Source of the DNA: Ignavibacteria bacterium
GTDB taxonomy: Bacteria; Bacteroidota; Ignavibacteria; UBA10030
Reading direction: 5' to 3'
Assembly (NCBI GenBank): GCA_016873805.1
Contig: VGVZ01000016.1
Coordinates: forward strand, 1 to 64,000
Length of the DNA: 64,000 nucleotides
The position numbers and the translations under genes were made by a program. Every line of letters begins with the position of its first letter. The first letter of the stretch is position 1. This document shows, piece after piece, positions 43,901-64,000 of this stretch. The notes below the pieces were generated by a model. That model did no database searches and was not told the DNA's origin. It saw nothing but the letters and a program-made list of their open reading frames with translations.

Positions 43901-46159
43901 CTAAGTTCTCATCTCACGATTGCGGTGAATCATCGCGATGAATAATCCTCCTGAAGCAAGGAGGGCTGCAATCCAAATGAAGATCATGAACGGTTTCAGA
44001 CTCGCCTCCACGACGAGCGTTTCCGGTCTCGCTTCCTCTTCGTGGTCATGGTCTCCCGTGTCAAAGCCAGCGATCTTGATCCGAACGGCCGATGGCCTTC
44101 CTTCCATCCCGACTGTGATTTCCTGAACCTGAAACTCGTATGGGGATCCTTTGAGTTTTACACCCCGAATTTCACGTTCATCATCTTGCTTGTAGATGGT
44201 AACAGGCGTCAGCACCTCCTTCTTCTTTCCCCTCACCACCTCGAGGACAGCACCGACCGGGAATGTACTTCCACCCATCGCACCAGCTTCAGTCCCATGC
44301 GGAGTCATGTCGAACCGAACAAACGTGACCTGCATGTCGCCAATTGTCACCGGTTCTCCCTTCGTGAGATCGAACACGTCATGCACATGCGCCCCTCCGG
44401 TTCCCTCCTCGACGGAGACCGGTTCAAGGTAGAAATCACGCGTGAGAAACGACGTGTAGTCCGGAATTCTCATCGTGCTGTTGTTAAATGTGCTGTGGTA
44501 CATCACGGGCGCGAGCGTGAATGTATTCGTTCCCTGTTCGGCTTCGACCACAAACCTCCACTTCTCATCCTTATCCCGTTGAGCACCCTTGTACGTGAGT
44601 CGGTAATTCAAGACCTCCTTTGACTCGTTCTGCGGCAGGGATACCGTGAGCTTCTTTCCATAGAACCCGGAGCCGATAATTGCAAGGAAGAGGATGGCCA
44701 CACCGATATGCGAGAGAGCCCCGCCCACCAACATCGGCTGTTCCTTCGCCAATCGGTATCCGTGACGAACGCAGACATAGAAGGCAAACAGCGAGGTGAA
44801 GGCCAGACCGGCCATCGCGGGATCGTGCAAGCCGATGACGATCAGGCCCGCAAGGGAAACCGCCGAGAGTACTGCGGCGAGCAACGCGCGACGCAGGAGT
44901 CCCTGCCATGATTCCATCCGGTACTGCACAAGGAGACTTAAGCCGATGAGCAACCCCATCAGGATTGCGATCGGAAGATTCGTTGAATCGTAGAAGGATG
45001 GTTCGACGGTCAATTTGGAAACGATGGGCAGGCTAGTTCCAAAGAGGATGATCAGTGCGCTTGCTGCAAGCGCAAGAACTCCAACCGTGATGAGCGACTC
45101 GCGGGTGATGGTTCCTACTCCCTCGCCCAGTTTCTTCAAATCACTCCATCGACGGGCGAGCATCACAAATCCTAAACCGATGATCGAGAGGATCCACACG
45201 ACGAGCAGCGTATACGCAACAGCACCGGGATCGGTGAAGGAATGCACAGACGCTTCCCCGAGGATTCCACTCCGTGTGAGGAATGTGCTGTACACGACAA
45301 ACACAAACGCGAGAATCGCCAGAGCAAAATTCATGCGCGCCAGCTTGCCGGTCTTCTTCTGAACAATCATCGTGTGGAGAAGCGCAACACCCACGATCCA
45401 GGGAATCAACGAAGAATTCTCTACAGGATCCCATCCCCACCATCCTCCCCAGCCAAGAACACCATAGGCCCAATATCCGCCGAACATCAATCCCGCGCCC
45501 AATGACAGGGCACCGAACAGAACCCACGGGAGTGCATGAGATATCCACTCACGGTACGCCTTCTTCCAGAGCGCACCGACGGCCAGCGCAAACGGAACAC
45601 CCATCGCGGCGAAGCCGACGAACAGAACGGGCGGATGAATGATCATCCAGAAATTCTGGAGCAAGGGATTCAATCCCCGTCCATCGGCCGGTACGTTGCC
45701 GACTGCCACCTCCTTGGGAAATGCGTTCCAGACATACTCAAACGGAGATTTCACCACCATAAGCAGGAGGAGAAACGCCTGCAGGAACGCATAGACCGCC
45801 ATCGTTTCCCCTTCGATTCCCCGCTTTCGCGAGAAATGCTGTAAGAACAATCCGATCAGCGCGGTGCAGAGCGCCCAGAAGAGGAAGCTCCCCTCTTGAC
45901 CCGCCCAGAACGTCGTAATGAGAAGTTCGAGCGGAAGATCGCGCGAACTGTAGCTCCAGATGTATTCGTATTCAAACTGGTGACGGAGGATATACAGCAT
46001 CAGTAACACAGATGCGGCAACGATCCCCGCGACGGAAATCACATAGGACTTCCGGGCACGATTCAGATCGCTTGTGTTTCCGTTCGTCCCTCGATAGTAG
46101 GAGAACACGCCAAATGCCGCTCCCAGAAACGAAACCCACACAATGATGACACCCAACAT
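43901..46159 (-). CDS. ccmF: Cytochrome c haem lyase subunit CcmF
   Basis: A 752-residue integral membrane protein of System I cytochrome c maturation. The WWD motif WGGWWGWDPVENSSLIPW (about 245-262) and flanking His residues bind haem for attachment to apocytochrome CxxCH sites. About 15 helices and a periplasmic domain are seen (560-700). AAGGAGAA lies before ATG. It is 87 bases after the 9-haem lipoprotein gene, so maturation is placed beside its substrates. The other ccm genes are not here. Confidence 0.95.
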   Translation of the reverse strand: MLGVIIVWVSFLGAAFGVFSYYRGTNGNTSDLNRARKSYVISVAGIVAASVLLMLYILRHQFEYEYIWSYSSRDLPLELLITTFWAGQEGSFLFWALCTALIGLFLQHFSRKRGIEGETMAVYAFLQAFLLLLMVVKSPFEYVWNAFPKEVAVGNVPADGRGLNPLLQNFWMIIHPPVLFVGFAAMGVPFALAVGALWKKAYREWISHALPWVLFGALSLGAGLMFGGYWAYGVLGWGGWWGWDPVENSSLIPWIVGVALLHTMIVQKKTGKLARMNFALAILAFVFVVYSTFLTRSGILGEASVHSFTDPGAVAYTLLVVWILSIIGLGFVMLARRWSDLKKLGEGVGTITRESLITVGVLALAASALIILFGTSLPIVSKLTVEPSFYDSTNLPIAILMGLLIGLSLLVQYRMESWQGLLRRALLAAVLSAVSLAGLIVIGLHDPAMAGLAFTSLFAFYVCVRHGYRLAKEQPMLVGGALSHIGVAILFLAIIGSGFYGKKLTVSLPQNESKEVLNYRLTYKGAQRDKDEKWRFVVEAEQGTNTFTLAPVMYHSTFNNSTMRIPDYTSFLTRDFYLEPVSVEEGTGGAHVHDVFDLTKGEPVTIGDMQVTFVRFDMTPHGTEAGAMGGSTFPVGAVLEVVRGKKKEVLTPVTIYKQDDEREIRGVKLKGSPYEFQVQEITVGMEGRPSAVRIKIAGFDTGDHDHEEEARPETLVVEASLKPFMIFIWIAALLASGGLFIAMIHRNREMRT

Positions 46160-46246: not shown

Positions 46247-47329
46247 TCAGAAACTGCGTTCCAATCCAAAAATATTGATTTTGCCGTTGATATGCTTCGT
46301 TTTGTCGATGATCTTCCCGCTCTGATCCATCACCGCAGGGTGACACGTCCAACAGCTTGTCAATCCTGCCGCGATATGGCCGGTCGGCGGCAGCCCGTGA
46401 CACGTGCCGCACGCGGCATCAGCGGCGCCACCGGTCCAGACCACCGACTTGTTCGCCCCCATCATCACACTGTCTGTGTAGACCAGCTGATACGGCGAGG
46501 ATGACCTTCGGAGACGCCAATTCCCATGACAGAACGTGTTGCTGCATGCGAGGGTCTGACTATTGAATGCGGGATTCGGCGTGACTGCGCTCGGCACTCT
46601 CGAGAGCGATCCGAACACAACTTCAGCGGGAAGATTTGAATCGATGTGACCTGTCGCGAGGAGTGTTGACGGGACCCTGTGGCATTCGGTGCAGAGGGTG
46701 ACTCCGCTGAAGGTCCCGCCGGTGAGATGCTTCTGATGCGCCCCCACTCCCCGATAGGAAGTGAGTGTCTCGCCCCGAACGCCTTTCGGAGGAGCAGCAG
46801 AAACGAGATCGTTGGCCGGAGCCGAAAAATCACCGTGGCATGTGTTACACGCCTCGGGAGATTTTGCCGCACCGTTGCGATCGACGTGACAACCTGATCC
46901 CATGCAGGAAACATCCACCCGACTTCCACCGGCATAGGTGGCACCATGACACGAACGACAATCTCCATACGGATATCCCTTGCTAGCGAGATATCCGGCA
47001 TGTCCCTTCGCAAACGGAGGAGTCACTTCGGCGAAGATTTCGTGGGGATATGAGAGATGGCAGGAATAGCACGAGACGTTGCTCACTCCCCCTTTGAAAG
47101 TCTTGGCATGACAGGGTGTGCAGTCGGCAAGCGTCCAGCTCTTCTTCTTCAAAAAGGTTCCATGGAAATCGGCAGAGCTTGAGGATTTCCAACCCGACGG
47201 GTGAATCTGAGTTGTCCCCTCAGTCGCCGTGGGGAGTTCTTGCTTGAGTTCACTGCACCCCGAAAGCAGGCTCAGAATCACGGTTCCTACGAGAACGGTT
47301 ATTCCAATATTCATTCTATGATTCTTCAT
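46247..47329 (-). CDS. Multihaem c-type cytochrome lipoprotein, about 9 haems
   Basis: A 360-residue protein with a lipoprotein signal (lipobox LSGC, Cys25). It has seven CxxCH sites and two CxxxxCH sites (CMGSGCH, CSNTFCH), each of the latter followed by a CxxCH; this CxxxxCH...CxxCH pairing is known from Geobacter cytochromes. Likely on the outer membrane. GAGG is six bases before ATG 47329. It is third in the barrel operon (13-base gap). Confidence 0.9.
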   Translation of the reverse strand: MKNHRMNIGITVLVGTVILSLLSGCSELKQELPTATEGTTQIHPSGWKSSSSADFHGTFLKKKSWTLADCTPCHAKTFKGGVSNVSCYSCHLSYPHEIFAEVTPPFAKGHAGYLASKGYPYGDCRSCHGATYAGGSRVDVSCMGSGCHVDRNGAAKSPEACNTCHGDFSAPANDLVSAAPPKGVRGETLTSYRGVGAHQKHLTGGTFSGVTLCTECHRVPSTLLATGHIDSNLPAEVVFGSLSRVPSAVTPNPAFNSQTLACSNTFCHGNWRLRRSSSPYQLVYTDSVMMGANKSVVWTGGAADAACGTCHGLPPTGHIAAGLTSCWTCHPAVMDQSGKIIDKTKHINGKINIFGLERSF

Positions 47330-47342
47330 GGAAGTCCTCACC

Positions 47343-48572
47343 TTACTTATGACAATAGCTGCAGAAACCGATTCCCTTGATCCCCTGAGGTCTGGCATTG
47401 GCATCGGTGTGGCAGATGTAACATGACGCACCCGGATCCGAATGCCATTCTCCCCGAACGGAGGACATGAATCCGCGCGCGTGAGTCTTCGCGTCGGTTC
47501 TCCTGATACCGTCGGCATCGGTGTGACAAGTCACGCAGGTGGGATCCGCTCCTTGTGCATCGTGGCATGCCGCGCATGTCTCGATGTCACGCCGCGCCAA
47601 CTCCGCGTGCAACCCGCCTCCCGATCCAGCACCGATCGTCTTGAAGCGGGGTTGCTGATGCGAATCCGGCTTGAACTTCAATTGATTGACATGACCCCCT
47701 GCTGCATGACACTCCGAGCAGAACTCGCGGGTACTGTGGCACGTTGCGCAGTTTGAGGCCTTTGCCTTCACCGCAATGCCGTGTGTGAAGCGGAAATTCA
47801 AATCGTGAACTTTTGTCAGCGCTGAGGTCTGACCCCTGTCGATGCCGAACAGGCGCGGGGAGATAGGTGTCGACAGGTCGCGCCCGGAGGCCACAGTGGC
47901 AAGCAATCCGGCTGCTGCGTGGCAATCCTGACAGGCGTCGTGCGTGTGGCACCCTGCACAACTCCGATCATCGAGCCGGACGATCCGCTTGTGTTCCCGA
48001 AGAAAGTTGGTACGATTATGGGCCACCGGTCGAAGAGCCGCAAGATCCGTATGGCAGGACTCGCACTGATTCGATGCCTTTGCCGCATCATGACAAGTGT
48101 TACACGTTTCCATCGGTGGAAGAGTAGATGGACCAGCATAGTCCATCTTGTCGAGTCCTTTGTGGCAACTTTCGCACGAAACGTCCTGCTCTTTGAGGTG
48201 CTGTTCATGCGAAAAGATAATTGTGCGAGGAGCTGTCGTGAGTGCAAGGTAGTCGGAAGGATCTTCGCTCGTGTGACAATACGTGCAGTTCGAATCAAGC
48301 TGTTCTTCATGGCACGACTGGCAGTTCGCTTTCTTGCTCAGCAGATTGTCGGACGATAGTCGGCTGGTCGCCGCCGCATCGTGACAATCGGCACATCCCA
48401 CACCGACCGTGTTGATATGGAACTGATGGGAGAACTTGATGATCTTGTTCCGCTCCCACTCCCCGACCGTCTCACGGGAGGTCAGCAGGACCGAAGAACC
48501 CACGATGAGCATTGGCAAGAGGGCGATCAGGAGATATGAGTATCGGGCAGTCAATCGAGTGATAGTGTGCAT
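47343..48572 (-). CDS. 14-haem c-type cytochrome
   Basis: A 409-residue protein with 14 CxxCH motifs over its whole length and an N-terminal hydrophobic segment (about 11-30) that is either a signal peptide or a membrane anchor. Axial His are plentiful (FSHQFH, FSHEQH, FTHG). It starts seven bases after the barrel gene. The arrangement suggests it transfers electrons to or through the barrel. Confidence 0.9.
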   Translation of the reverse strand: MHTITRLTARYSYLLIALLPMLIVGSSVLLTSRETVGEWERNKIIKFSHQFHINTVGVGCADCHDAAATSRLSSDNLLSKKANCQSCHEEQLDSNCTYCHTSEDPSDYLALTTAPRTIIFSHEQHLKEQDVSCESCHKGLDKMDYAGPSTLPPMETCNTCHDAAKASNQCESCHTDLAALRPVAHNRTNFLREHKRIVRLDDRSCAGCHTHDACQDCHAAAGLLATVASGRDLSTPISPRLFGIDRGQTSALTKVHDLNFRFTHGIAVKAKASNCATCHSTREFCSECHAAGGHVNQLKFKPDSHQQPRFKTIGAGSGGGLHAELARRDIETCAACHDAQGADPTCVTCHTDADGIRRTDAKTHARGFMSSVRGEWHSDPGASCYICHTDANARPQGIKGIGFCSYCHK

Positions 48573-48579
48573 GACAATC

Positions 48580-49869
48580 TCAAAAGATGGTGAGATGTTC
48601 GCTGATGAAGAAGCTTCCCCTCAGCATAAGCCGCATGTCGTCCTGATAGATCTTGTTGTTGACCCATTGAATCTGACCGTCGAACGAGAGTGATTGCATC
48701 GGGCGAAACACAATTCCTCCCCCGATCGCAAGCGTCCCGTCCAGGTCTTTTGCGAACTCGCTGAGTTTGTACTCCGCATAGCTGGCCATGATGGTGGGAG
48801 TGAGCATTCCCGAGCAGAATGGGTACGAGGCATGAAGCGACGCCGCGCTCAACTCTCCGCCGTAGGTCGCATTCCGCGTCATGCTCACGCCGACATAGGA
48901 TCCTTGAATTCCCGCAGTGATTCGCTGAGTCGTTTCGCCGCCGTACGACACCGTGCCGAATCTTGCGAACGTGTGCCAGCCGCGGAAGGGTTCATACTCC
49001 AATCCGGCTTCCAGTTCTGTGAGCGTGTTGTAGGCAAAAACCGAAAAGAATGAATTGTAGGATAACCGCGGCTCCCGTCGCAGATATTCTCCCGTCACAG
49101 CAAACCGGTCCATGAGTTGGAAACGCGCGAAGACTTCACCCCGCGCCATCCGCTCGAAGTCAAGATCATAGTCGTAGCGTCCATAGATCGTCGTCCTGCC
49201 ATCGACCACCAGATTGACATCGACACCCAGATACTGTTCGGAGGAGGCGCCTGGTTTGATTTCGACGAGGTAGGGATTGAACAGCGAGTCGCGACGGAAC
49301 GCTTTGTACGCCGACGGCTTGATGGTCCGATTCAGATAGCTGACCGCGATCTGAGCGTTTTCGGCGGGGAGAAATTGTATCTGTCCGCCGTACATCATGT
49401 TGTCCGACGCTTCCTTGATCAGTTCGAGTTTGTATCCCGCTGGAACGAGAGAACCTCCGTAGGCGTTGAGCCGGATTCTCGAATCGAACAGCTTGACTCC
49501 GGTCTTCACTCCGTCAATCGCTCCGACTCCCACGCCGGCGTAGACTGCCTGACGACCGACATGCAAATCACCAACCCCTCCGATATTCTTCCACTGCAGG
49601 TTGAGATGACAGAACTTCAGTTGCGGGTCGTTCTTGAACGGTCCGTCAAAATCATTGAACGCTTGCATGTACGAGTTGAAGGCAAGCGACGAACCTGCAA
49701 GTGAAAGCTGGACGGTTTGGAAACCGTAGAGGTGGCTCGAGGAGGTTCCAATCGTATCCTGCCGCTCCCACGCATAGGCTGAAGTCACAAATCGCGCTTG
49801 GAGCCGCTGTGCGATTGCCGCCTCCGAGCAGAGAGCGAGCAACGCAAGGAGAAGGAATGCTTGTCTCAT
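48580..49869 (-). CDS. Outer-membrane beta-barrel protein, porin-cytochrome type
   Basis: A 429-residue protein with signal peptide (1-20, ending AIAQ) and many alternating amphipathic strands (for example TTIYGRYDYDL, FARFQLMDRFAVTG) and a terminal Phe (HLTIF), as in barrels that insert by the BAM complex. No known porin family is obvious. Its operon with two multihaem cytochromes points to the OmbB/MtrB role of sheathing an outer-membrane cytochrome. ATG 49869 is chosen for the signal peptide. Confidence 0.8.
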   Translation of the reverse strand: MRQAFLLLALLALCSEAAIAQRLQARFVTSAYAWERQDTIGTSSSHLYGFQTVQLSLAGSSLAFNSYMQAFNDFDGPFKNDPQLKFCHLNLQWKNIGGVGDLHVGRQAVYAGVGVGAIDGVKTGVKLFDSRIRLNAYGGSLVPAGYKLELIKEASDNMMYGGQIQFLPAENAQIAVSYLNRTIKPSAYKAFRRDSLFNPYLVEIKPGASSEQYLGVDVNLVVDGRTTIYGRYDYDLDFERMARGEVFARFQLMDRFAVTGEYLRREPRLSYNSFFSVFAYNTLTELEAGLEYEPFRGWHTFARFGTVSYGGETTQRITAGIQGSYVGVSMTRNATYGGELSAASLHASYPFCSGMLTPTIMASYAEYKLSEFAKDLDGTLAIGGGIVFRPMQSLSFDGQIQWVNNKIYQDDMRLMLRGSFFISEHLTIF

Positions 49870-50045: not shown

Positions 50046-52622
50046 TCATGCCTCTGTCCGTTGCGGCCAAAGAATCAATCCTTCCTTTCGCGGCTCATCG
50101 AGGTCGGCATGTCGTGGGAGTACACGAACGCTGAATCCGTGTCTTCCGCTGGTCGTCATTGGGAGCGTGCACGTGAATTCACCCATCTCCCCCTGCGGAG
50201 ATCCGCTGAAGGTCAACGGCGTAATCTCTTGATTCACGATGTCCCCTTTTGCGTCAAGGATACCGTGCACGAGTTCAACGGCAAGGTCATCGGCGCCGAG
50301 TTGACCCATTCGAAGTTTCACCCGCACGACAAGGTCTTCACCGACCCGGAGTCCGTCCTTTGTTTCCGTTTTGACATCAACGATCCTGAGATCTCCCCAC
50401 TTCTGGTGAATGCGCTTCTTCCATTCCGCCAGTTGTTTGGCTCGCTTCATTTGATCCGAAGACATCAGGCCGAAACGCTCGGCCGACGGCAAGTAGAACG
50501 CTTCCGTATATTCTCTCACCATTCTGTTGGTGTTGAAGACCGGGCAGATCGATCTCATCGATGTTTTCATCTTGGAAATCCAACCGCGCGGCAATCCGTC
50601 AGCGCCTCGGTCGTAGAACAACGGAACGACATCTTTCTCGAGAAGATCATAGAACGCATTGGCCTCAACCTCATCTTGGTACGCTTCTTCGTCGTATTCT
50701 TCTCCCTTTCCGATCGCCCAGCCGGTGTGCACGTTATACGCCTCCACCCACCATCCATCGAGGATACTCAGGTTCAGCGCTCCGTTGAAGGCCGCCTTCA
50801 TGCCGCTCGTCCCGCTCGCCTCCAGTGGCCTTCGCGGTGTGTTGAGCCAGACATCAACGCCCTGGACCATGTACCTCGCCACAACCATGTCGTAGTCTTC
50901 CAGAAAGACCATGCGTCGCCGGATTTCCGGATTCCGTTCGAAGTGAACAATCTGACGGATCAGTTCTTTGCCTGCGTTGTCGCGAGGATGCGCCTTGCCG
51001 GCAAAAATGATCTGTACGGGACGATCCTTGTTGGTGAGAATCCTGAGCAGTCGTTCCGGATCCCGGAGCATCAATGTCGCCCGTTTGTACGTCGCAAATC
51101 GCCTCCCGAACCCGATCGTGAGTGCTTCGGAATCGAGAATCTCTCTCGCCTGTTTGACCTCTGAGGGGGGTGCACCGCGCGCCACCAATTGCTCATGGAG
51201 ACGATGTCGGGCGTACGCCACCAGTCGCTCTCTCCGTCGCTCATGCGTCCGCCACAATTCCTCGTCGGGAATATGATGCACTCTTCCCCACGTGGCGTAG
51301 TCTCCCGGGTCTTCAATCCATCGCGGCCCAAGGTATCGGTCGAACAAGCCAACCATATCCCGACTGATCCACGACGGTCCGTGCGTTCCATTCGTAATCG
51401 AGGTGATGGGGACTTCATTGGTCGGGATCCCGGGCCAGACATCCCTCCACATGCCTCTCGACACTGTCGCGTGGAGTTTACTCACGCCGTTGCTGTGTCC
51501 GGACATTTTCAGCGCCAGGATCGTCATGCAGAAGTGCTCGGTTTCGTCCTCCGGATTTCTCCGGCCGAGACCGAGGAAATCTTTCCGGGAAAGTCCGAGC
51601 AGTTTGTAAAGCGAACTGAAGTATTTCTCCATCAGCTCGGGGGGAAAATAGTCGTTCCCCGCAGGCACCGGTGTATGCGTGGTGAACACCGTACCCGCCG
51701 AAATGATCTCCCGTGCTTCGGCAAACGAAAGCTTGTGCTGGCTCATGAGATCACGGGCACGCTCCAGGACGAGGAACGCCGAGTGACCTTCATTCAGATG
51801 ATACACGGGGGGCGAAATCCCCAGCGCCTTCAACGCTCTGTATCCGCCGATTCCGAGGAGAGTCTCCTGCATAATCCGCATCTCTCCATCGCCGCCATAG
51901 AGCTGATCGGTGATGTTCTGATCATCTTTCGAGTTCTCCGGGATATTCGTATCGAGGAGGAAAAGGCGGATGCGGCCGACGCGAACTCCCCACACTTGGG
52001 CCGTCACTTTTCTTCCAGGGAGGTCGACCTGTATCTTGACCGGAGCTCCTTTGTGATCCCGTTCGAGTGTCAGGGGCATCACAAAGAAATCATTCTCGGG
52101 ATATCGTTCCTGCTGCCAACCGTCGGCATTCAGATACTGCCGGAAGTACCCTTGTTGATACAAGAGTCCGACTCCTACGAGGGGGATCCCCAGGTCGCTC
52201 GCCGACTTCAAATGATCGCCGGAGAGCACTCCCAAACCGCCTGAGTAGTTGGGGATGCACTCGGTCAGCCCAAACTCTGCCGAGCAATATGCAACGAGGG
52301 GTGATGCTTCGATCGAATGGTTCTTGGCGTACCACGTTTTCGCGTTGTCGACATAGTCCTTGAATCGTTCCCATGCCCGCTCCAGTTGAGCGAGGAAGGC
52401 ATCGTCACGTGCCAACGTATTCAGGCGTTCCTGCTTGATCATGCCGAGCATCCGAACCGGATTGTGACGGGTTTCCTCCCAGAGGTCCAGATCGAGCCGC
52501 ATGAAGAGAGCAATCAGTTCAACATCCCATACCCATACGAGGTTGTATGCAATTTCCCGGAGTCGTTCGAGCTCGGGGGGAAGGGCGGGGTCGACTTTGA
52601 AGGTGAAAATGGGGCGTGTCAT
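50046..52622 (-). CDS. glgP: Alpha-glucan (glycogen) phosphorylase
   Basis: An 858-residue GT35 enzyme that releases glucose-1-phosphate from alpha-1,4-glucan. The bacterial N-terminal extension (about 12-130, with YNLVWVWD) precedes the catalytic domain; the PLP-binding Lys is in EASGTSGMKAAFNG. Several motifs such as HLNEGHSAF and FTTHTPVPAGND are conserved. A C-terminal beta domain follows (about 770-855). Regulatory phosphorylation sites of eukaryotic enzymes are not expected. Confidence 0.95.
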   Translation of the reverse strand: MTRPIFTFKVDPALPPELERLREIAYNLVWVWDVELIALFMRLDLDLWEETRHNPVRMLGMIKQERLNTLARDDAFLAQLERAWERFKDYVDNAKTWYAKNHSIEASPLVAYCSAEFGLTECIPNYSGGLGVLSGDHLKSASDLGIPLVGVGLLYQQGYFRQYLNADGWQQERYPENDFFVMPLTLERDHKGAPVKIQVDLPGRKVTAQVWGVRVGRIRLFLLDTNIPENSKDDQNITDQLYGGDGEMRIMQETLLGIGGYRALKALGISPPVYHLNEGHSAFLVLERARDLMSQHKLSFAEAREIISAGTVFTTHTPVPAGNDYFPPELMEKYFSSLYKLLGLSRKDFLGLGRRNPEDETEHFCMTILALKMSGHSNGVSKLHATVSRGMWRDVWPGIPTNEVPITSITNGTHGPSWISRDMVGLFDRYLGPRWIEDPGDYATWGRVHHIPDEELWRTHERRRERLVAYARHRLHEQLVARGAPPSEVKQAREILDSEALTIGFGRRFATYKRATLMLRDPERLLRILTNKDRPVQIIFAGKAHPRDNAGKELIRQIVHFERNPEIRRRMVFLEDYDMVVARYMVQGVDVWLNTPRRPLEASGTSGMKAAFNGALNLSILDGWWVEAYNVHTGWAIGKGEEYDEEAYQDEVEANAFYDLLEKDVVPLFYDRGADGLPRGWISKMKTSMRSICPVFNTNRMVREYTEAFYLPSAERFGLMSSDQMKRAKQLAEWKKRIHQKWGDLRIVDVKTETKDGLRVGEDLVVRVKLRMGQLGADDLAVELVHGILDAKGDIVNQEITPLTFSGSPQGEMGEFTCTLPMTTSGRHGFSVRVLPRHADLDEPRKEGLILWPQRTEA

Positions 52623-52700
52623 AATGGCTCCCGATCTCCTCTCCGCTGTTCTGCGCGGGTGAGGAGGATGTGTAGATAATCCTGATTAAGATCTCAGACA

Positions 52701-52742
52701 AAAAGAAAAGTGACAGAGGATTGCTGCATCCTCTGTCACTTC
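52701..52742 (-). terminator. Intrinsic terminator after citrate synthase
   Basis: A 13-bp perfect stem (52709-52721 with 52730-52742) with an A-rich flank on the plus strand, that is TTTTCTTTTT after the stem on the minus strand. It lies about 70 bases beyond the gltA stop. Confidence 0.88.
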
Positions 52743-52810
52743 GCTATTGTTCATGTCGCACGATGTGGCTCGTGATCGACATCCGTTCTCTCCGGTCTTC
52801 GCTCACCGGT

Positions 52811-54103
52811 CTATTTCGGCACGTCCCGCTTGCTGTAACCGAGGAAGATCTGGCGAGGACGGGCGATCTTTTGTTCCTGATCCGTAAGCATCTCCTGCCA
52901 CTGGGCCAGCCACCCCGACATACGGGGGATTGCGAAGAGGACAGGGAACATATCGGTCGGGAAATTCATCGCCTTGTAGATGAGGCCCGAATAGAAGTCG
53001 ACGTTCGGATAGAGCTTCCGTTTGACGAAATAGTCATCCTCGAGCGCAATCCGTTCGAGTTCCAGTGCGATTTCCAGTTTCGGATCCTTTTTGGTCACGG
53101 AAAACACCTCGTCGGCCATCTTCTTAATGATTTTGGCGCGCGGGTCATAGTTCTTGTAGACCCGGTGGCCGAATCCCATCAAGCGACCGTGTCCCTCCTT
53201 GCAGGACTTGACAAACTCAGGCACTTTGTCCTTCGTCCCGATTTCATCGAGCATGCGAAGCACCTGTTCGTTTGCGCCCCCATGCAACGGTCCATAGAGA
53301 GCGGCCGCCGCACCGGCAGAGGAACAGTACGGATCCGAATGTGAACTGCCGATGGAACGCATGGTGTTCGCGCTGCAGTTTTGCTCATGGTCGGCGTGCA
53401 GAGTGAACAGGACGTCCAGCGCCCGGGAGAGAATTGGATTCGGCTTGTACTGTTTCTCCCCCACTTTGAACATCATGCTGAGGAAATTCTCGGTGTAGTT
53501 CAGATCATTGTCCGGGTAGATATACGGCATTCCCAAACTGTGTCGGTACGCGAATGCGGCAATGGTCGGTACCTTCCCGATCAGTCGCCAGATCTGTCGC
53601 TGCCGCATTTCCGGATCAAGAACTTTCTTGGAATCGGGATAGAACGTGGAGAGCGCGGCGAGCGTGCTCACGAAGATGCCCATGGGGTGAGCATCGTAGC
53701 GGAATCCTTCCATGAGCTGCTTGACGTTCTCATGGACAAACGTGTGGTTCTTGATGTTGAGCGTCCAGTCTTCCAGTTCTTTCTTGGTGGGAAGCTCTCC
53801 ATTGAGAACCAGATACGCCACTTCAAGGTACGTTCTTGTCTCTGCGAGTTGTTCGATGGGATACCCGCGATAGTGCAGGATTCCCCTCTCCCCATCGATG
53901 AACGTGATCCTGCTGATGCATGATGCGGTATTCATGAATGCAGGATCGTACGACATCATACCGAAATCGTCTTCCTTCACCTTAATCTGTCTCAGATCGC
54001 TTGCGCGGATGGTGTCGTGTTGGATGGGGATCTGGTATTCCTTGTTCGTACGGGTGTCGGTAATCTTCAGCATGCCTTCGACATCCGGAGTCGTCTTCTC
54101 CAT
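52811..54103 (-). CDS. gltA: Citrate synthase
   Basis: A 430-residue TCA-cycle enzyme. The catalytic residues are in LHADHEQNCS (His), GPLHGGANEQVL (His) and VDFYSGLIYKAM (Asp). The N-terminal beta strand domain (about 1-60) is typical of the hexameric, Gram-negative type. A strong AAGGAGGTG precedes the start. Confidence 0.96.
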   Translation of the reverse strand: MEKTTPDVEGMLKITDTRTNKEYQIPIQHDTIRASDLRQIKVKEDDFGMMSYDPAFMNTASCISRITFIDGERGILHYRGYPIEQLAETRTYLEVAYLVLNGELPTKKELEDWTLNIKNHTFVHENVKQLMEGFRYDAHPMGIFVSTLAALSTFYPDSKKVLDPEMRQRQIWRLIGKVPTIAAFAYRHSLGMPYIYPDNDLNYTENFLSMMFKVGEKQYKPNPILSRALDVLFTLHADHEQNCSANTMRSIGSSHSDPYCSSAGAAAALYGPLHGGANEQVLRMLDEIGTKDKVPEFVKSCKEGHGRLMGFGHRVYKNYDPRAKIIKKMADEVFSVTKKDPKLEIALELERIALEDDYFVKRKLYPNVDFYSGLIYKAMNFPTDMFPVLFAIPRMSGWLAQWQEMLTDQEQKIARPRQIFLGYSKRDVPK

Positions 54104-54321: not shown

Positions 54322-54870
54322 TTATCCTTTGGGTACGGGGTGTCTGATCTTCCCTAGTGCCTCTTCAAAATTGAATCCTTTGTACGTCGGGCTCTTCTCA
54401 TTGTGGCAGGTTACACAAGATGCCTTGACCGCCGCCGCATCTTTGAACTCCCGCATTCCGGCCGCAACTGCCTTTGCCTTGTCCTTCATGATGAGAATTG
54501 TCTTGTAGGCAGATCCCGCATTGTGACAGTCTTCGCACTGCACGCCATCCTTGAGATCGAAGGATTTGTCGAGAAGCTTCGCGTCTACCTTGTAGGCTGG
54601 CGCATGACAATCGAGACACTCCGCCGCTTCGACAGCCGGCTTTGTCAACCCCTTCGCCTTCGCGATCTCTGCGGCTTTCGGTGTGTTCAGTGTCTTGTAC
54701 GCTTTCGCATGATCGCTTTTTTGCCAGATGTCGAGCTGCTTCCCTTGCTTGTCAGTCTTGTGACACATCGAACACATCTTGACGCCAATATATTTGTTTT
54801 GCGCCTGAACAGTAAACGCCGCGATGAGCAGAACAACAATAAGAACCAAGAATAGTCTCATGTTTCGCAT
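54322..54870 (-). CDS. Tetrahaem periplasmic cytochrome c (c554-like)
   Basis: A 182-residue protein with signal peptide (about 1-24, ending VQAQ) and four CxxCH sites (CSMCH, CLDCH, CEDCH, CVTCH). The C-terminal half KASCVTCHNEKSPTYKGFNFE and the haem spacing resemble the cytochrome c554 family. Probably a soluble carrier between the membrane cluster and other acceptors. AAGGAGG precedes the start. The 295 bases upstream, to the 11-haem gene, contain no recognised gene, so it may have its own promoter. Confidence 0.9.
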   Translation of the reverse strand: MRNMRLFLVLIVVLLIAAFTVQAQNKYIGVKMCSMCHKTDKQGKQLDIWQKSDHAKAYKTLNTPKAAEIAKAKGLTKPAVEAAECLDCHAPAYKVDAKLLDKSFDLKDGVQCEDCHNAGSAYKTILIMKDKAKAVAAGMREFKDAAAVKASCVTCHNEKSPTYKGFNFEEALGKIRHPVPKG

Positions 54871-55165
54871 TCGGATCCTCCTTGATTGGCGAGGTTGAAC
54901 GGTGGCTGTGGTTTGGTGAGCGGACATTCATGAAGCGACGGTCGGAGAGCGTTTGTCTGTTCATGTTTGACTCGGCAGGCATCGCGCGTTGTCAACCGTG
55001 AGAGTGACCGTGCAGTAACCGCTTCTCTCGATGAGCATACTCATAAAATCGGAAATATCCAAGTCCGTTACGCTTGGAGTCCCGAACGGTTAAAGTCTTC
55101 TCCAACAGCATTCCAATTCTTGGGAATGACCCTCATGAAAGCAGTCGAGCAATCCCATTCGATGG

Positions 55166-56635
55166 TCAGCCGGTACTCTGATGCTTTTCGATCCTTCGAA
55201 TCGCGAAATACAGGGCGATAGCGAGTACGGTAATGATGAGGGTCGAGATCCCCAATCCCCATCGTCTGAAATAGTATTCCTCAATGGCGTTCTGGGCTTC
55301 TCTCTGAACTTCCTCCGTTACAGACATTCCACGTTTGACGGTTTCTGCGAACTTGGCTTCATCAAATGAATGCACGAGCGTCTTCGCTTGCAGGCGTGCC
55401 TGACGCACATCACGAAATCTGAATTTGGCCTCTGAAATCTCCATCCCTTTTTGCTCTGCCTCCGCAACAAGCTCGGCCGTTTGCCGTTCCCCCAGATCAA
55501 GACTGTCGATCAGGGCTCGCATGGTCCGCGCGACTTCATATCCCTTGGGCGACACCTCGGTTGTGTGGCACGTTCGGCACACGGCTCCCTCGGATACACC
55601 GAGCAACCGATCGGTAGCCGCAATAATTTCGTGGCTCCCGTGGCACGTCTCACATTCGGGCAGTTTCTTTGCGTCAAACGCTTTCTTGTGCGGACTGGCC
55701 GCGAACAAATCGGCATTCATCACATGGCATGTTCCACACACTTTTGAGATCGACGACACCCCGGGGGGCATGGCCCCGTGGTTCCCGTGGCAGCTGTTGC
55801 AGGCCGGCGCCGCCAAATCCCCCTTCACCAGGAGAGACTTCCCGTGCACGCTGGAGGCGTACTTGTCGAACTGATCGGTGGGAATCCGATACCCCTTCAT
55901 GTAGTCCTTGTTGCTGTGACACTTCGCGCACGTTTGAGCAATGTTCGTCGGATAGACGAGTGATTTCACGTCCTTGGCGGCACGAATTTCATGGCTTCCG
56001 TGACAACTCACGCATTCGGCAACCTTTGCATCACCCTTCGCGTTCCGCATCCCATGCTCGCTGGTCCGGTACTTTTCCATCTGGTCGACCGGAAGACTCG
56101 GGTTGTAGTTGCGCATGTAGGATGCACCGCTGTGGCACTTGGAACAGAGAGCGGTGACTTTGAGAGGATGAACCGGCGAAGCCGGATTCTTTGCGCTCAG
56201 GATTCCATGAGCGCCGTGACAAGTCGTACATTGCACGAGACGTTCACGACCCGATAACGCACTCTTTCCATGAATGCTCGAGGCGATCTCTTCCGCCTGC
56301 TGAACGGGAATCGATGATCGATACTTCGCCATCTCTTCGGAATTCGAGTGACACTTCGCACACGCGGCGGTCACGGCATCCCCCTTCGGAACGCCGATAT
56401 ACCCGGCGCGAGGATCCATCGCGTGTTCCATCTCCTCTTGTGACGCGTTTCCACCGTGACATCCGGCGCATGTGACTCCTCGCTGGTAGTGCACATCGCT
56501 GCGATAGAGCGCCGCGTTCCTGTCGCTGATGGCCTCATGACACGTGAGGCATTGGTCAGTCCTCGGGCCACGTTGGGCGAACAGACCCGTCACGAACATC
56601 ACCAATCCGAAGATCGCCGCGAGCAATTTGATCAT
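55166..56635 (-). CDS. 11-haem cytochrome c with C-terminal membrane anchor
   Basis: A 489-residue protein with signal peptide (1-20), eleven CxxCH sites (Cys29 to Cys353) and one C-terminal helix (about 461-481). Haems 3 to 8 repeat every 72 residues (Cys92/164/236 and 136/208/279), with CxxCHG.H motifs. A helical, haem-free region (about 362-455) links to the anchor. Its ATG overlaps the cytochrome b stop (ATGA). No cytochrome c1 gene is seen, so it probably accepts electrons from the Rieske/cytochrome b unit. Confidence 0.9.
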   Translation of the reverse strand: MIKLLAAIFGLVMFVTGLFAQRGPRTDQCLTCHEAISDRNAALYRSDVHYQRGVTCAGCHGGNASQEEMEHAMDPRAGYIGVPKGDAVTAACAKCHSNSEEMAKYRSSIPVQQAEEIASSIHGKSALSGRERLVQCTTCHGAHGILSAKNPASPVHPLKVTALCSKCHSGASYMRNYNPSLPVDQMEKYRTSEHGMRNAKGDAKVAECVSCHGSHEIRAAKDVKSLVYPTNIAQTCAKCHSNKDYMKGYRIPTDQFDKYASSVHGKSLLVKGDLAAPACNSCHGNHGAMPPGVSSISKVCGTCHVMNADLFAASPHKKAFDAKKLPECETCHGSHEIIAATDRLLGVSEGAVCRTCHTTEVSPKGYEVARTMRALIDSLDLGERQTAELVAEAEQKGMEISEAKFRFRDVRQARLQAKTLVHSFDEAKFAETVKRGMSVTEEVQREAQNAIEEYYFRRWGLGISTLIITVLAIALYFAIRRIEKHQSTG

Positions 56636-57702
56636 GATAGATATCCGAGGATTGTGAAGAGAATAACATAGGCAACCAGAAAGATTCCCAGGTAGGTGAT
56701 GAAGCGGCTCCGCTCACCCCGTTTCGTCCGTTGATCCCAGAAGGGTACCAGCATCCAGAGCACACCCCCCACAGAAAACATCAAGACACCAAATGTGTCT
56801 CCGTCGATGAACAGGACGTGGGATGGAATGTACTTGAGCGTTTGAAACATGAACATGAAGTACCACTCCGGTTTGATGCCCGCAAACGCCGGCGCGAATG
56901 GATCGGCTTTTTCTCCGAGCTCCCACGGGAAGAAGACCGCCAGAATCGCGAGCACGTTGAGGACGATAAGCCAGAGGAGAAGATCACGAAGAAGAAAGTT
57001 GGGAAAGAACGGCATCGTTCTCTTCGTCGATGGCGCGGCCGATTCCAGCTCCATGGGCTCACTCATTCCCTGTCGCTGAACGAGAATCAAGTGGATCGCG
57101 AGAAACACCGTGAAGATTCCCGGCAAGACGGCAACGTGAAATCCGAAAAACCTCGACAGAGTGGCTCCCGTTACTTCCTCACCCGCCCTCAGAAATGTCA
57201 GGAGCGGCTCTCCCACCACCGGCACTGATCTGACGATATCGGTACCGACTTTTGTCGCGAAAAACGCCAGCTGATTCCAGGGCAGAAGGTATCCGCTGAA
57301 TCCAAATGCGAGAGCGAGCAAGAAGAGAATCATCCCCGTCAGCCACGTGATCTCCCTTGGCTTGCGGTAGGCACGCGTGAAGTACACACTAAACATGTGG
57401 ATCATCGCGGCAAGGACAAACAGATTCGCGGCCCAGCTGTGAATGGAACGAATGAGCCATCCAAATTCCACTTTTGACATGATGTAATGGATACTCTCAA
57501 ACGCCAAATCCTCGGTTCCCTTGTAGTACAAGAGGAGCAAGATCCCCGTTACCACCTGGATAATGAAGAGGAAGAGGGATACGCCGCCAAAATAGTACCA
57601 CACAGAATGGCTGTGAACGGGAACGTATTTCTTCCCGAGAAAGTCTACGACATCTTCAAGATGAACACGTTCGTCAATCCACTGATAGATTCTTTTCCAC
57701 AT
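56632..57702 (-). CDS. Cytochrome b of a bc-type quinol oxidase complex
   Basis: A 356-residue membrane protein with about eight helices in the cytochrome b/b6 family. The two bis-His haem pairs are in IRSIHSWAANLF with MIHMFSVY and GFHVAVLPG with AIHLILV. The PEWY quinol-oxidation motif is present (IKPEWYFMF). Full-length cytochrome b, not the split b6/IV form. It starts five bases after the Rieske gene. Confidence 0.95.
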   Translation of the reverse strand: MWKRIYQWIDERVHLEDVVDFLGKKYVPVHSHSVWYYFGGVSLFLFIIQVVTGILLLLYYKGTEDLAFESIHYIMSKVEFGWLIRSIHSWAANLFVLAAMIHMFSVYFTRAYRKPREITWLTGMILFLLALAFGFSGYLLPWNQLAFFATKVGTDIVRSVPVVGEPLLTFLRAGEEVTGATLSRFFGFHVAVLPGIFTVFLAIHLILVQRQGMSEPMELESAAPSTKRTMPFFPNFLLRDLLLWLIVLNVLAILAVFFPWELGEKADPFAPAFAGIKPEWYFMFMFQTLKYIPSHVLFIDGDTFGVLMFSVGGVLWMLVPFWDQRTKRGERSRFITYLGIFLVAYVILFTILGYLS

Positions 57703-57707
57703 AGGCG

Positions 57708-58163
57708 CTACCCTTTTTTCGAGACGAGAACGTCTTCCCCTTGAACGAGTACGTTGAACTCATCGAGGGGACGTGGAGGAGGTCCTGCGATCACTCTTCC
57801 GGTGAGATCGAATTTGCCGTTGTGACACGCGCACCAGATCACTCCCATGTCGGGTCGAAACTGCACGGTGCAGTCGAGATGTGTACATGTTGCGCTGAAC
57901 GCCTTGAGATCCCCGGCCGCGGTCCTCACGAGCAGCACCGGCTTCGTGCCAAACCGGATGATCACGCCGCTGTCCGTCGCGATTTCACTCAGCTTGCCCA
58001 CTTTGACGCTCGTGACTTCCACTCCCGCCTGCTTCGGAGGAATAAGGTAAGCCAGGACCGGATAGATAACGGAAACGGCCCACGCCACGAGACCACCCCC
58101 AAGGAGATAGGAGAGAAAATCTCTCCGATTCGACCGTCTTTCGCCTCCCTGATTCGCTTCCAA
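57708..58163 (-). CDS. Rieske iron-sulfur protein
   Basis: A 151-residue protein with a twin-Arg-like start (RRDFLSYLLGGG), one membrane helix and the [2Fe-2S] motifs CTHLDC and CACHNGKF. The proline-rich loop GPPPRPLDEF follows. The start is uncertain: TTG 58163 has GAGAGAGG at good spacing and gives a normal length; ATG 58256 would add 31 residues. It forms an operon with cytochrome b and the 11-haem gene. Confidence 0.92.
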   Translation of the reverse strand: MEANQGGERRSNRRDFLSYLLGGGLVAWAVSVIYPVLAYLIPPKQAGVEVTSVKVGKLSEIATDSGVIIRFGTKPVLLVRTAAGDLKAFSATCTHLDCTVQFRPDMGVIWCACHNGKFDLTGRVIAGPPPRPLDEFNVLVQGEDVLVSKKG

Positions 58164-58336
58164 TCGCGCACCTCTCTCAAATGTGTTCGTTGTTGTCCAA
58201 GAGTTTCCGAAACTCCACACATAGTACTCAGCGCTCGATTCATTTTCAACCTTCATCGACCGCGGAACAATGCGCAGAACGGAGGCGGCGGACGTCAGCC
58301 CAGCCCTCCTCCCAGTGCCTCCCATCGACAGCCGTT

Positions 58337-59830
58337 TCAATTTGTGGTGTGACAATCGCTGCAGTGCATCGACTTCCAGGCATCGCCGATATCGACCGGG
58401 TGAACGTACTCGAGCCCCTCGAGCGCGAGACGAATCGGTCGTTTGCCGATTTGCTGAGCGAGAATCGTATGACAGGTATTGCAGTCGCGAGAGAGCACCG
58501 TTCCATCGTCGCTCACGTGCTTTCCGTCGTGGCATCGAAAACACCCGGGCGTGTACATATGTCCGATGTGATCCGGGTATTGTCGCCAATCGTGTTTCAT
58601 CTCGGGAAAGTAGTTGCGTGTGTAGATGGTCCGAATTTCCTGGACCGCGCGATCGATTTGGGCTCTCTGTGTCTGATAGATCGAAGGATACAGCGATTTA
58701 TAGTATTCCTCGACAACGACGCCGATGCTGTCGAGGGCCTGTTTCTTAGAGGAGTATGGATGTTCGAGTGCGTGGACCGCGACACTCTTGATGAACGGAA
58801 GCGAGCGGTCGATCCACTTCAGATCCATAACATGATTGACCGATCGTTGAGGCGGGTGATAGATATGAGTCGGACGATTATGACAATCCACGCAGTCCAT
58901 TCGCCGCGTCGGTCTGGCAGAAAGCATTTCGTCCGTGACTTCAACTTCTGTGCTCCGATACGTCCGAATCTTCCCGTCCGAAGTCTTGACTCGCACCCAT
59001 GGAATCACGATCCGCTGCGAATCGAGCGGGACATAGGTGACTTCGTTGGCGATATTCATGTGCCAGTGGATGCCCGACGTGGGTCCGGCCTCCACATTTC
59101 CGCCGCCGATCTTCATGAGCAGTGTGAGATTCCATGGAGTATTCTCTTTGTCGGTCAGATAGTAGGTGAACGACCTCTGCTTCTCATGGAAAAAGTGCTT
59201 GGGCCAATGACACTGCTCGCACGTCTCCTGAGCCGGACGAAGGTGCTGAATAGGAGTTGGAATCGGACGCGGGTACTTGTCGAAGAGCGTGGCATACACC
59301 TGATACGCGCCGGAGAGTTTCGAGCGAACGAACCAGTCTGCGCCGGGTCCGATGTGACACTTCACGCATCCGACTCGTGCATGGGGAGAATACTGGTACG
59401 CGGCGTATTCCGGCTCCATCACTTTGTGACACACCTGTCCACAGAATTCATCCGAGTCGGTATACTCGTACGCTTTGAAACTCCCGAACGCCGAGAACAC
59501 GAGAAGTAGTATCGTGCCGATGGAAAAAATCGTGAACGCCATTCGGTGTTGAGGGATGTTGAGATCCACACGAGGGAGATGAGTGTGAAATTCTGTCCCT
59601 TTCCGTTCCCGGAAGTACTCCCGAATCCATCCGGCGGCAATCAGCACGAGACCGATAATCAGGAATCCCGGCAGAACGACGAACGCGAGGATCCCCATGT
59701 AGGGCTTCTGTTCCTCAGCCAGCAATTCGAGCACGACGAGAAAAACGATCAACCCAAAACTCACGGCGGCGATGGCGGAACCGAGGAGCGACACCGGGTT
59801 GTAGAACTTATCGGGAAGGACTCTGCTCAT
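58337..59830 (-). CDS. NapC/NirT-type membrane heptahaem cytochrome c
   Basis: A 497-residue protein with three N-terminal helices (about 16-36, 46-68, 98-118) and then seven haem sites: CGQVCH (Cys130, a CxxxCH) and six CxxCH (155, 204, 313, 430, 450, 490). CHKVMEPEYAAYQYSPH resembles the first-haem region of NapC/NrfH-like quinol dehydrogenases. It would oxidise menaquinol and pass electrons outward. The long haem-free 205-312 region has no clear match. Confidence 0.88.
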   Translation of the reverse strand: MSRVLPDKFYNPVSLLGSAIAAVSFGLIVFLVVLELLAEEQKPYMGILAFVVLPGFLIIGLVLIAAGWIREYFRERKGTEFHTHLPRVDLNIPQHRMAFTIFSIGTILLLVFSAFGSFKAYEYTDSDEFCGQVCHKVMEPEYAAYQYSPHARVGCVKCHIGPGADWFVRSKLSGAYQVYATLFDKYPRPIPTPIQHLRPAQETCEQCHWPKHFFHEKQRSFTYYLTDKENTPWNLTLLMKIGGGNVEAGPTSGIHWHMNIANEVTYVPLDSQRIVIPWVRVKTSDGKIRTYRSTEVEVTDEMLSARPTRRMDCVDCHNRPTHIYHPPQRSVNHVMDLKWIDRSLPFIKSVAVHALEHPYSSKKQALDSIGVVVEEYYKSLYPSIYQTQRAQIDRAVQEIRTIYTRNYFPEMKHDWRQYPDHIGHMYTPGCFRCHDGKHVSDDGTVLSRDCNTCHTILAQQIGKRPIRLALEGLEYVHPVDIGDAWKSMHCSDCHTTN

Positions 59831-59852
59831 AAAGTACCCTGGCCAGTTGTGA

Positions 59853-62728: not shown

Positions 62729-62740
62729 TCGCCGTTCTCA

Positions 62741-64000
62741 TCAGTGCTTCGATCCGACGTCTTCAATCTCGATCGTCGCCTCTGCCCTCCCCTCACTCCT
62801 GTCGATTTCCGCCAGCTCCCGGGGATGTTCTTCCATCATCTCTTCCCTCGTCAAGGTGCCTTTCAGCCAGGCGAGGTTCATTGGATAGGAATCGGGATTG
62901 AAGATAACAAAATAGAAATGCCAAACGATGATCGCAAGCATCGCCAGCCATGCTTCGTAGAAATGGATGGTCCGGGCTACGTCCCACCCGAGCTTCGTAA
63001 GCAATCCCATGAAGGTATTGTCAAACCATAAAATGATGCCCGTCACGCACATGACGATCGTTCCCCACACCAGGGCCCAGTATTCTGCCTTCTCGATGTA
63101 GCTGAACCGACCGAGCAACGGTTTCTCCTCCGAAAGACCGAAATTGAACTTGATCATGCCGATCGTTTCGCCGATATCTTCTCGGCGTGGGAGCATATCA
63201 AATACAAGCCGACGACCACGCGGCGTGAACATCACATAGTAGACATGGTACAGACTGACAAGTACCATCGCGACGCCCGCGATCCGGTGCAGTAAGCTCC
63301 TGATTTCAAAAACGTACGAGCTCACATCCCGGATGCTCACCACCCACCACGCCTCCGGATATCTCAGCATGAATCCGGTAATCGTGAGAATGATGAAGCT
63401 CAGCGCCATTACTCCGTGTTGCAGTCGTTCGTTGAACGTCATCCTCAGGTAGAGACCGTGTCCGACATGATGATGTTCAATCGAGCCGCGTCGAATTCGA
63501 AGCTTCCGCTTTGCTTTTTTTACGAAATCGGCCGCGTTGTGGACGAACATTCCTCCTATCGTCAGGACGATGATGATCACGTAGGCCGTCGATATCCAAT
63601 AGAGCAGAGGTTCCTCCTCTTTTGTTGCCCGTACATGAACCGATCCGATCGCAAAACGCTCGTTCGCACCGGGATGACACGATCCACACGTCTTCGCGAG
63701 ATTGGATTTGTGAATCGTCGATGTCGGGTCACTCGATCGCTTAATGTTGTGCGAACCGTGACAGCTGGCACAATTGGCGACCTCGACCGACCCCGCCTTG
63801 ATTGCCAGACCGTGATAGCTATCCTCAAACGTCCGATACTTATCCGTGCGAATGCCGTACTTTTCCGAAAGTCGAAGCGAGGTGTGACACGGTGAGCAGG
63901 TTTGACCCGATACGTTGAGCGGAGCGACCGGCGATCGCGGATCTTGAGGAGACAAGATATTGTGTTCACCGTGACAATCGGTGCAGCCGGGCGAACCCTT
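62741..64000 (-). CDS. Multihaem cytochrome c fused to cytochrome b (5' end outside window)
   Basis: The frame is open to the window edge; the visible part has 419 residues. The N-terminal part carries four CxxCH sites (CTDCH, CSPCH, CASCH, CGSCH), the last in GSCHPGANERFA. Then follow a helix and a cytochrome b domain with His in LQHGVMAL, LLHRIAGV and HFYEAW...IVWHFYF. The layout resembles CbcL-like c-b fusions of Geobacter, which oxidise menaquinol for metal reduction. The rest of the haem region lies beyond the window, so the total number is unknown. Confidence 0.85.
   Translation of the reverse strand, partial: KGSPGCTDCHGEHNILSPQDPRSPVAPLNVSGQTCSPCHTSLRLSEKYGIRTDKYRTFEDSYHGLAIKAGSVEVANCASCHGSHNIKRSSDPTSTIHKSNLAKTCGSCHPGANERFAIGSVHVRATKEEEPLLYWISTAYVIIIVLTIGGMFVHNAADFVKKAKRKLRIRRGSIEHHHVGHGLYLRMTFNERLQHGVMALSFIILTITGFMLRYPEAWWVVSIRDVSSYVFEIRSLLHRIAGVAMVLVSLYHVYYVMFTPRGRRLVFDMLPRREDIGETIGMIKFNFGLSEEKPLLGRFSYIEKAEYWALVWGTIVMCVTGIILWFDNTFMGLLTKLGWDVARTIHFYEAWLAMLAIIVWHFYFVIFNPDSYPMNLAWLKGTLTREEMMEEHPRELAEIDRSEGRAEATIEIEDVGSKH

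What the first reader, a model, noticed from the sequence alone, without database searches (positions are those of the whole stretch)
46247..49869. Candidate porin-cytochrome conduit for extracellular electron transfer
Barrel (48580-49869), 14-haem protein (47343-48572) and 9-haem lipoprotein (46247-47329) are an operon with gaps of 7 and 13 bases. This is the gene content of Geobacter porin-cytochrome sets (barrel, periplasmic cytochrome, outer-surface lipoprotein cytochrome), but the barrel and haem numbers are different, so it may be a distinct class.
Basis: partly seen in the sequence, partly recalled or inferred. Interest (0 to 1): 0.7.

Follow-up and report, generated by a model that had tools for sequence, protein, structure and literature searches.

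The report
Porin-cytochrome operon for exporting electrons
Three neighbouring genes very probably build an outer-membrane barrel with a string of haems threaded through it that carries electrons out of the cell; the arrangement is real and widespread among this bacterium's relatives, and essentially the same gene set was published in 2014 from Ignavibacterium, so it is a new member of a known kind.

Summary
Three minus-strand genes, with gaps of 7 and 13 bases, encode a 429-aa beta-barrel protein, a 409-aa cytochrome with 14 CXXCH motifs, and a 360-aa lipoprotein with 7 CXXCH plus 2 CX4CH motifs.

The interpretation, a porin-cytochrome (Pcc) conduit, is well supported by comparative evidence. 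The trio is conserved in order. Of 150 relatives' genomes 108 have the barrel, and all 104 with the full 14-haem-type protein also have it. All 14 haem-binding histidines and 12 distal histidines are invariant among the 14-haem members. CbcL-like, cytochrome b/Rieske and NapC-type inner-membrane cytochromes lie upstream.

'A distinct class' is correct at sequence level but not new. Shi et al. 2014 described the Ignavibacterium album locus IALB_1840-1837, whose periplasmic cytochrome has 400 residues and 14 haem motifs, and noted it as distantly related to other Pcc.

Not shown: structure (AlphaFold without an alignment failed), location of the 14-haem protein, direction of electron flow, and direct homology to OmbB (no Geobacter sequence was reachable).

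The most interesting neighbour is outside the finding: two multihaem cytochromes with type IX secretion tails.

The parts
48580..49869 (-). outer-membrane beta-barrel protein (Pcc porin-like subunit), 429 aa, signal peptide ending ...AIA-QR, C-terminal phenylalanine
   Evidence: ORF; single-copy family in the class; weak porin/OMP/LptD Pfam hits in relatives; about 22-24 strands by a home-made count calibrated on six E. coli barrels
47343..48572 (-). 14-haem c-type cytochrome, 409 aa, presumed periplasmic wire inserted in the barrel
   Evidence: 14 CXXCH; 14 proximal and 12 distal His conserved in all 28 14-haem members; profile similarity to the Geobacter c7-polymer structure 3ov0, E 1.5e-29
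46247..47329 (-). outer-membrane lipoprotein cytochrome, 360 aa, 7 CXXCH + 2 CX4CH
   Evidence: LLSGC lipobox; TIGR01904 / PF09698 domain
43901..46159 (-). CcmF/NrfE-type haem lyase directly downstream (cytochrome c maturation), associated gene
   Evidence: PF01578, PF16327, TIGR00353; next to the trio in many relatives
54322..54927 (-). tetrahaem periplasmic cytochrome (c554 type), the gene directly upstream of the barrel in most relatives; in the window 4.4 kb away
   Evidence: PF13435 E 4.5e-19; synteny
55166..56635 (-). 11-haem membrane-anchored cytochrome of the associated quinol-oxidase block
56632..57702 (-). cytochrome b (b6/ExtP-like) of the associated quinol-oxidase block
   Evidence: PF00033, NF040969 below cut-off
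57708..58589 (-). Rieske iron-sulphur protein (the real start is probably internal; relatives are about 150 aa)
   Evidence: PF00355, relatives
58337..59830 (-). NapC/NrfH-type multihaem membrane cytochrome
   Evidence: PF03264
59853..60878 (-). cytochrome b561-like membrane protein
   Evidence: PF01292 below cut-off, TIGR01583
60731..62728 (-). 19-haem membrane-anchored cytochrome
62742..64000 (-). CbcL-like fusion of a 13-haem c-type domain and a di-haem b-type membrane domain (continues beyond the window, to contig position 65009)
   Evidence: PF01292 E 2.5e-18, TIGR01583, haem count

Best explanation
A porin-cytochrome (Pcc) electron conduit of the Ignavibacterium type. The barrel (48580-49869) sits in the outer membrane and sheathes the elongated 14-haem cytochrome (47343-48572), which collects electrons on the periplasmic side (probably through the tetrahaem c554-type protein at 54322-54927) and passes them haem to haem across the membrane to the surface lipoprotein cytochrome (46247-47329). 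From there electrons go to an extracellular acceptor, or possibly to further exported cytochromes. Electrons would enter from menaquinol through the inner-membrane cytochrome b/Rieske/NapC and CbcL-like proteins encoded upstream. Shown: genes, motifs, conservation, linkage. Inferred: complex formation, membrane placement, direction (outward, by analogy), acceptor (Fe(III)/Mn(IV) minerals, electrodes, humics or partner cells).
For: Tight operon. 108 of 150 relatives' genomes have the barrel and all 104 with the full 14-haem-type protein also have it; of the 4 exceptions, two lie at contig ends and two are fragments. The order barrel -> multihaem cytochrome -> lipoprotein holds in the relatives' loci inspected and in a divergent set in another class. 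All 14 haem-binding His and 12 distal His are invariant in 14-haem members. The lipobox is conserved. Barrel character rests on weak porin/LptD/OMP hits in relatives, a Viterbi barrel score above shuffled sequence, 24.6 against 11.3 +/- 5.2, and about 22-24 strands, as many as BtuB in the same test. The conduit is next to the tetrahaem protein and a quinol-oxidase block in relatives, and CbcL-like, b561 and NapC-type proteins lie upstream. Published match in gene content, order and haem number: IALB_1840-1837 of I. album (PMC4245776). Ignavibacteria with OmbB-like Pcc (PMC7399161; PMC6137239). The related Fe(III) reducer M. roseus carries one.
Against: No confident structure: AlphaFold2 on single sequences gave pLDDT 30 (barrel) and 36 (14-haem). 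The 14-haem protein lacks a clear signal-peptidase site in the window copy, so an uncleaved membrane anchor cannot be excluded. I. album carries the set but is reported not to reduce solid Fe(III)/Mn(IV) (PMC4245776). Homology of this barrel to Geobacter OmbB was not tested directly.
Confidence: 0.86

Rival explanations
1. Same conduit, but run inward or towards a non-mineral substrate: extracellular electron uptake (Fe(II), partner cells, cathode) or a specific soluble oxidant, rather than metal-oxide respiration.
For: I. album has the set but does not reduce solid Fe(III)/Mn(IV) (PMC4245776); CbcL/MtrH/MtoC homologues occur in both oxidisers and reducers (PMC6295460); ExtI-type conduits act on selenite/tellurite (PMC6148476).
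Against: Quinol-oxidase-type partners upstream and a related Fe(III) reducer, Melioribacter, that carries a Pcc make outward flow more likely; nothing in the sequence fixes direction.
Confidence: 0.1
2. Not a trans-outer-membrane wire: the 14-haem protein stays anchored in the inner membrane by its N-terminal helix (like QrcA or ActA) as a periplasmic redox hub, and the barrel is an ordinary porin or assembly factor co-transcribed with it.
For: Best curated sub-threshold hit is QrcA (NF041781, 45.5 bits against a cut-off of 180); the N-terminal hydrophobic stretch lacks a clear cleavage site in several members; ACIII subunit A (6btm_A) and c7 polymers are the nearest structures.
Against: Complete co-occurrence and fixed adjacency of barrel, cytochrome and lipoprotein cytochrome; one relative (L038) has a clear cleavable signal peptide; barrel and cytochrome divergence are correlated (r = 0.86), though shared ancestry alone also gives such values.
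Confidence: 0.04

Closest known systems
Ignavibacterium album Pcc locus IALB_1840-1839-1838-1837 (Shi et al. 2014, PMC4245776)
   Same: Order periplasmic cytochrome - porin - 14-haem cytochrome (400 aa there, 409 here) - outer-membrane cytochrome with atypical haem motifs; one set per genome; isolated from other Pcc families in their trees.
   Different: In the window the periplasmic tetrahaem gene is separated from the barrel by glgP and a citrate synthase gene; the lipoprotein has 7+2 motifs. Identity to the I. album proteins themselves was not computed because no named I. album sequence was reachable; unnamed relatives with this layout are 27-54% identical to the window barrel.
Geobacter sulfurreducens OmbB-OmaB-OmcB / ExtABCD / ExtEFG conduits
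   Same: Same three-part architecture (barrel, periplasmic multihaem cytochrome, outer-surface lipoprotein cytochrome); barrels of comparable predicted size (18-22 strands reported for Pcc).
   Different: 8-haem OmaB and 12-haem OmcB against 14 haems and 9 motifs here; no direct sequence comparison was possible.
Shewanella MtrCAB
   Same: Works alike: barrel with inserted multihaem wire and surface cytochrome.
   Different: MtrB/PioB family PF11854 is absent from the whole genome; MtrA has 10 haems; a 6r2q match to the 14-haem profile is weak (E 6e-4), as expected from shared CXXCH motifs.
Geobacter dodecahaem c7 polymer (PDB 3ov0) and octahaem/hexahaem c7-type proteins
   Same: N-terminal half of the 14-haem protein matches these (E 1.5e-29 with the profile), including a conserved Met (M154) that may ligate one haem (inference).
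   Different: Those are free periplasmic or extracellular proteins without a barrel gene next to them (own knowledge).

Membership tests
Porin-cytochrome (Pcc) conduit, general | barrel outer-membrane protein gene adjacent to a multihaem cytochrome gene and an outer-membrane cytochrome gene | tested here: met
Porin-cytochrome (Pcc) conduit, general | porin-like protein with about 18-22 predicted transmembrane strands | tested here: inconclusive
   own method gives 22-24 for the window (20-24 for most relatives, 18-26 over all tested); controls OmpT, FadL, OmpF, LamB, BtuB and LptD are recovered within 0-4 strands
Porin-cytochrome (Pcc) conduit, general | outer-membrane cytochrome is a lipoprotein | tested here: met
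   LLSGC lipobox, conserved in nearly all of 39 relatives
Porin-cytochrome (Pcc) conduit, general | periplasmic/outer-membrane localisation of the inner cytochrome | tested here: inconclusive
   hydrophobic N-terminus, no clear cleavage site in the window copy, clear one in L038
Geobacter OmbB/OmbC family | sequence homology of the barrel to OmbB | not tested
   no Geobacter sequence was reachable with the tools; published HMM/BLAST work reports OmbB-like porins in Ignavibacteria
Ignavibacterium-type Pcc (IALB_1840-1837) | about 400-residue periplasmic cytochrome with 14 CXXCH next to the porin, and an outer-membrane cytochrome with atypical motifs | tested here: met
MtrAB/PioAB/MtoAB | barrel belongs to MtrB_PioB (PF11854) | tested here: not met
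   no PF11854 match for the barrel nor in the genome
MtrAB/PioAB/MtoAB | decahaem periplasmic cytochrome | tested here: not met
   14 CXXCH
[quoted passage not shown]
   needs electrode, mineral or proteoliposome assay

The most novel reading that the evidence does not exclude
The operon is the outer-membrane step of a complete, class-specific electron-export module of about 30 kb. It joins several alternative quinol oxidases (cytochrome b/Rieske/NapC, b561 plus 19-haem, CbcL-like), a barrel family with no relative among solved or catalogued proteins, a 14-haem wire, and extracellular multihaem cytochromes carrying type IX secretion tails, so that the terminal reductases are exported as folded haem proteins through T9SS.
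Probability: 0.35. Interest if true: 0.5.

Novelty: new member of a known kind. Interest (0 to 1): 0.27.

Why it matters
It indicates that a single-copy Pcc conduit is a near-core trait of a whole bacterial class (108 of 150 related genomes; 57 of the 58 genomes with a hit in a phylum-wide sample of 395 belong to this class), which widens the set of bacteria expected to breathe minerals or electrodes. It also gives a 41-member alignment of a barrel family that no Pfam, NCBIfam or PDB entry covers.

Tried and rejected
The genome-contig scan returned one locus (L034, Aegiribacteria) that is a chance 19-residue match inside an unrelated gene. Plasmid searches found only general cytochrome c3 proteins matching the N-terminal half and no barrel. 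MtrB/PioB membership was tested and rejected. A first strand-count model without a hairpin penalty over-segmented and was replaced by a calibrated one. The correlation of divergence between barrel and cytochrome (r = 0.86) was not used as evidence of interaction because ccmF correlates equally well (0.89-0.90).

Full report
WHAT IS THERE. Three genes on the minus strand are read in the order barrel (49869-48580), 14-haem cytochrome (48572-47343), lipoprotein cytochrome (47329-46247), with 7 and 13 bases between them; a CcmF-type haem lyase follows at 46159-43901. The middle protein has exactly 14 CXXCH motifs and no atypical ones. The lipoprotein has 7 CXXCH and 2 CX4CH motifs, so 'nine haems' is right only if the CX4CH sites bind haem; the CX4CH...CXXCH pair is the curated GSu_C4xC__C2xCH domain (TIGR01904 E 6e-12, PF09698). 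Its start at 47329 is preceded by AGGTGAGG and gives a clean LLSGC lipobox.

CONSERVATION. With the barrel as query, 108 of 150 related genomes have a match, one copy each apart from fragments split at contig ends. With a profile of the 14-haem protein at E <= 1e-60, 104 of the same 150 match; every one of the 104 also has the barrel. Of the four barrel-only genomes, two have the barrel near a contig end and two have only fragments. I fetched the surroundings of 40 of them: the order barrel -> multihaem cytochrome -> lipoprotein cytochrome holds wherever the contig is long enough. The cytochrome has 14 haems in 28, 12 in 9, 11 in 3 and 13 in 1 of 41 (the 13 is cut by a contig end); the shorter ones lack the last C-terminal haems. 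All 14 haem-binding histidines and 12 further histidines are invariant among the 28 14-haem members, enough for bis-histidine ligation of 12 haems; a nearly invariant methionine (M154) could serve another (inference). In a sample of 395 genomes of the phylum the barrel profile finds 58 genomes, 57 of them in the same class and one outside it. That outlier, L124, carries the whole set: barrel (hhalign probability 99.4% over 381 columns), a shorter multihaem cytochrome (32% identity), a lipoprotein (31% identity) and a c554-type tetrahaem protein upstream, next to CbcL-like, b561 and multihaem genes.

IS IT A BARREL AND HOW WIDE? No Pfam, NCBIfam or PDB family matches the window protein. Relatives give weak hits to Porin_4, OMP_b-brl, LptD and BBP2_2, the proteins start with a signal peptide ending in xxAQ, and the window protein ends in phenylalanine. 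I wrote a small segment model of barrel topology and calibrated it on E. coli OmpT, FadL, OmpF, LamB, BtuB and LptD; at the penalties that recover these within 0-4 strands the window protein scores 22-24 strands and most relatives 20-24. The shuffled window sequence scores 11.3 +/- 5.2 against 24.6. The emission values are my own approximations, so the count is an estimate. A barrel of that size is in the range published for Pcc porins (18-22, PMC4245776) or slightly above it, and close to BtuB-type barrels, which hold a folded plug; it is not too narrow on this evidence. AlphaFold2 without an alignment failed on both proteins.

SURROUNDINGS. Upstream in the window come glgP and a citrate synthase gene, then a tetrahaem c554-type protein, an 11-haem membrane cytochrome, cytochrome b, Rieske, a NapC/NrfH-type cytochrome, a b561-like protein, a 19-haem membrane cytochrome and a CbcL-like 13-haem/b-type fusion that runs past the window end. 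In most close relatives the quinol-oxidase block and tetrahaem gene sit directly before the barrel, without glgP and citrate synthase, so these two genes look like a later insertion or rearrangement. CbcL and NapC/CymA-type proteins are the known or proposed quinol oxidases feeding outer-membrane conduits (PMC6295460). Two further multihaem cytochromes (8 and 9 haems) just beyond the window carry T9SS type A sorting domains, and the genome has PorU and SprA.

COMPARISON WITH WHAT IS KNOWN. Shi et al. 2014 (PMC4245776; [quoted passage not shown] The layout seen in several relatives here (c554 - barrel - 14-haem - lipoprotein, e.g. L070) is the same set. OmbB-like Pcc were later reported from Ignavibacteria at electrodes and in an iron-rich hot spring (PMC7399161; PMC6137239), and Melioribacter roseus, an Fe(III) reducer, has one. 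MtrB/PioB is absent from the genome. Direct homology to Geobacter OmbB could not be tested.

MECHANISM AND CERTAINTY. Most likely: menaquinol -> inner-membrane cytochrome complexes -> tetrahaem c554-type protein -> 14-haem wire inside the barrel -> surface lipoprotein cytochrome -> extracellular acceptor, perhaps via T9SS-exported cytochromes. Shown: gene content, motifs, ligand conservation, linkage. Inferred: placement, complex formation, outward direction, acceptor. The main weak point is the N-terminus of the 14-haem protein, which has no clear cleavage site in the window copy and whose N-terminal half resembles QrcA/ActA-type and c7 proteins; fractionation would settle it.

VERDICT. Modest interest on its own, somewhat more as part of the surrounding module.

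Noticed in passing
just beyond the window: G000:C16 65215-66786 and 67671-69770 (L095 9215-10786 and 11671-13770, minus strand): Two multihaem c-type cytochromes (8 and 9 CXXCH) with C-terminal T9SS type A sorting domains (TIGR04183, E 1.8e-10 and 2.5e-11); the genome has PorU and SprA. They suggest export of haem proteins by type IX secretion; two searches of the paper library combining T9SS with multihaem cytochromes found nothing.
   Followed up: partly
window 50046-54103: Glycogen-phosphorylase-like gene and citrate synthase gene sit between the tetrahaem cytochrome and the conduit; most close relatives lack them there.
   Followed up: partly
window 54322-64000 and onward to contig position 65009: Chain of tetrahaem, 11-haem, cytochrome b, Rieske, NapC-like, b561-like, 19-haem and CbcL-like 13-haem/b-type genes: several alternative quinol oxidases in one cluster.
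   Followed up: partly
relatives L035, L036, L037, L039, L040, L041 between lipoprotein and ccmF: A second cytochrome gene of about 390-430 aa (5-6 CXXCH, often one CX4CH) follows the lipoprotein; in the window it is missing and the lipoprotein has more motifs.
   Followed up: no
L042 4439-7066: The lipoprotein homologue is enlarged to 875 aa with 18 CXXCH and 3 CX4CH, showing how variable the outer-surface part is.
   Followed up: no
L095 15057-17837: A histidine kinase and NtrC-type response regulator pair lie upstream of the cytochrome cluster on the same strand, possible regulators.
   Followed up: no
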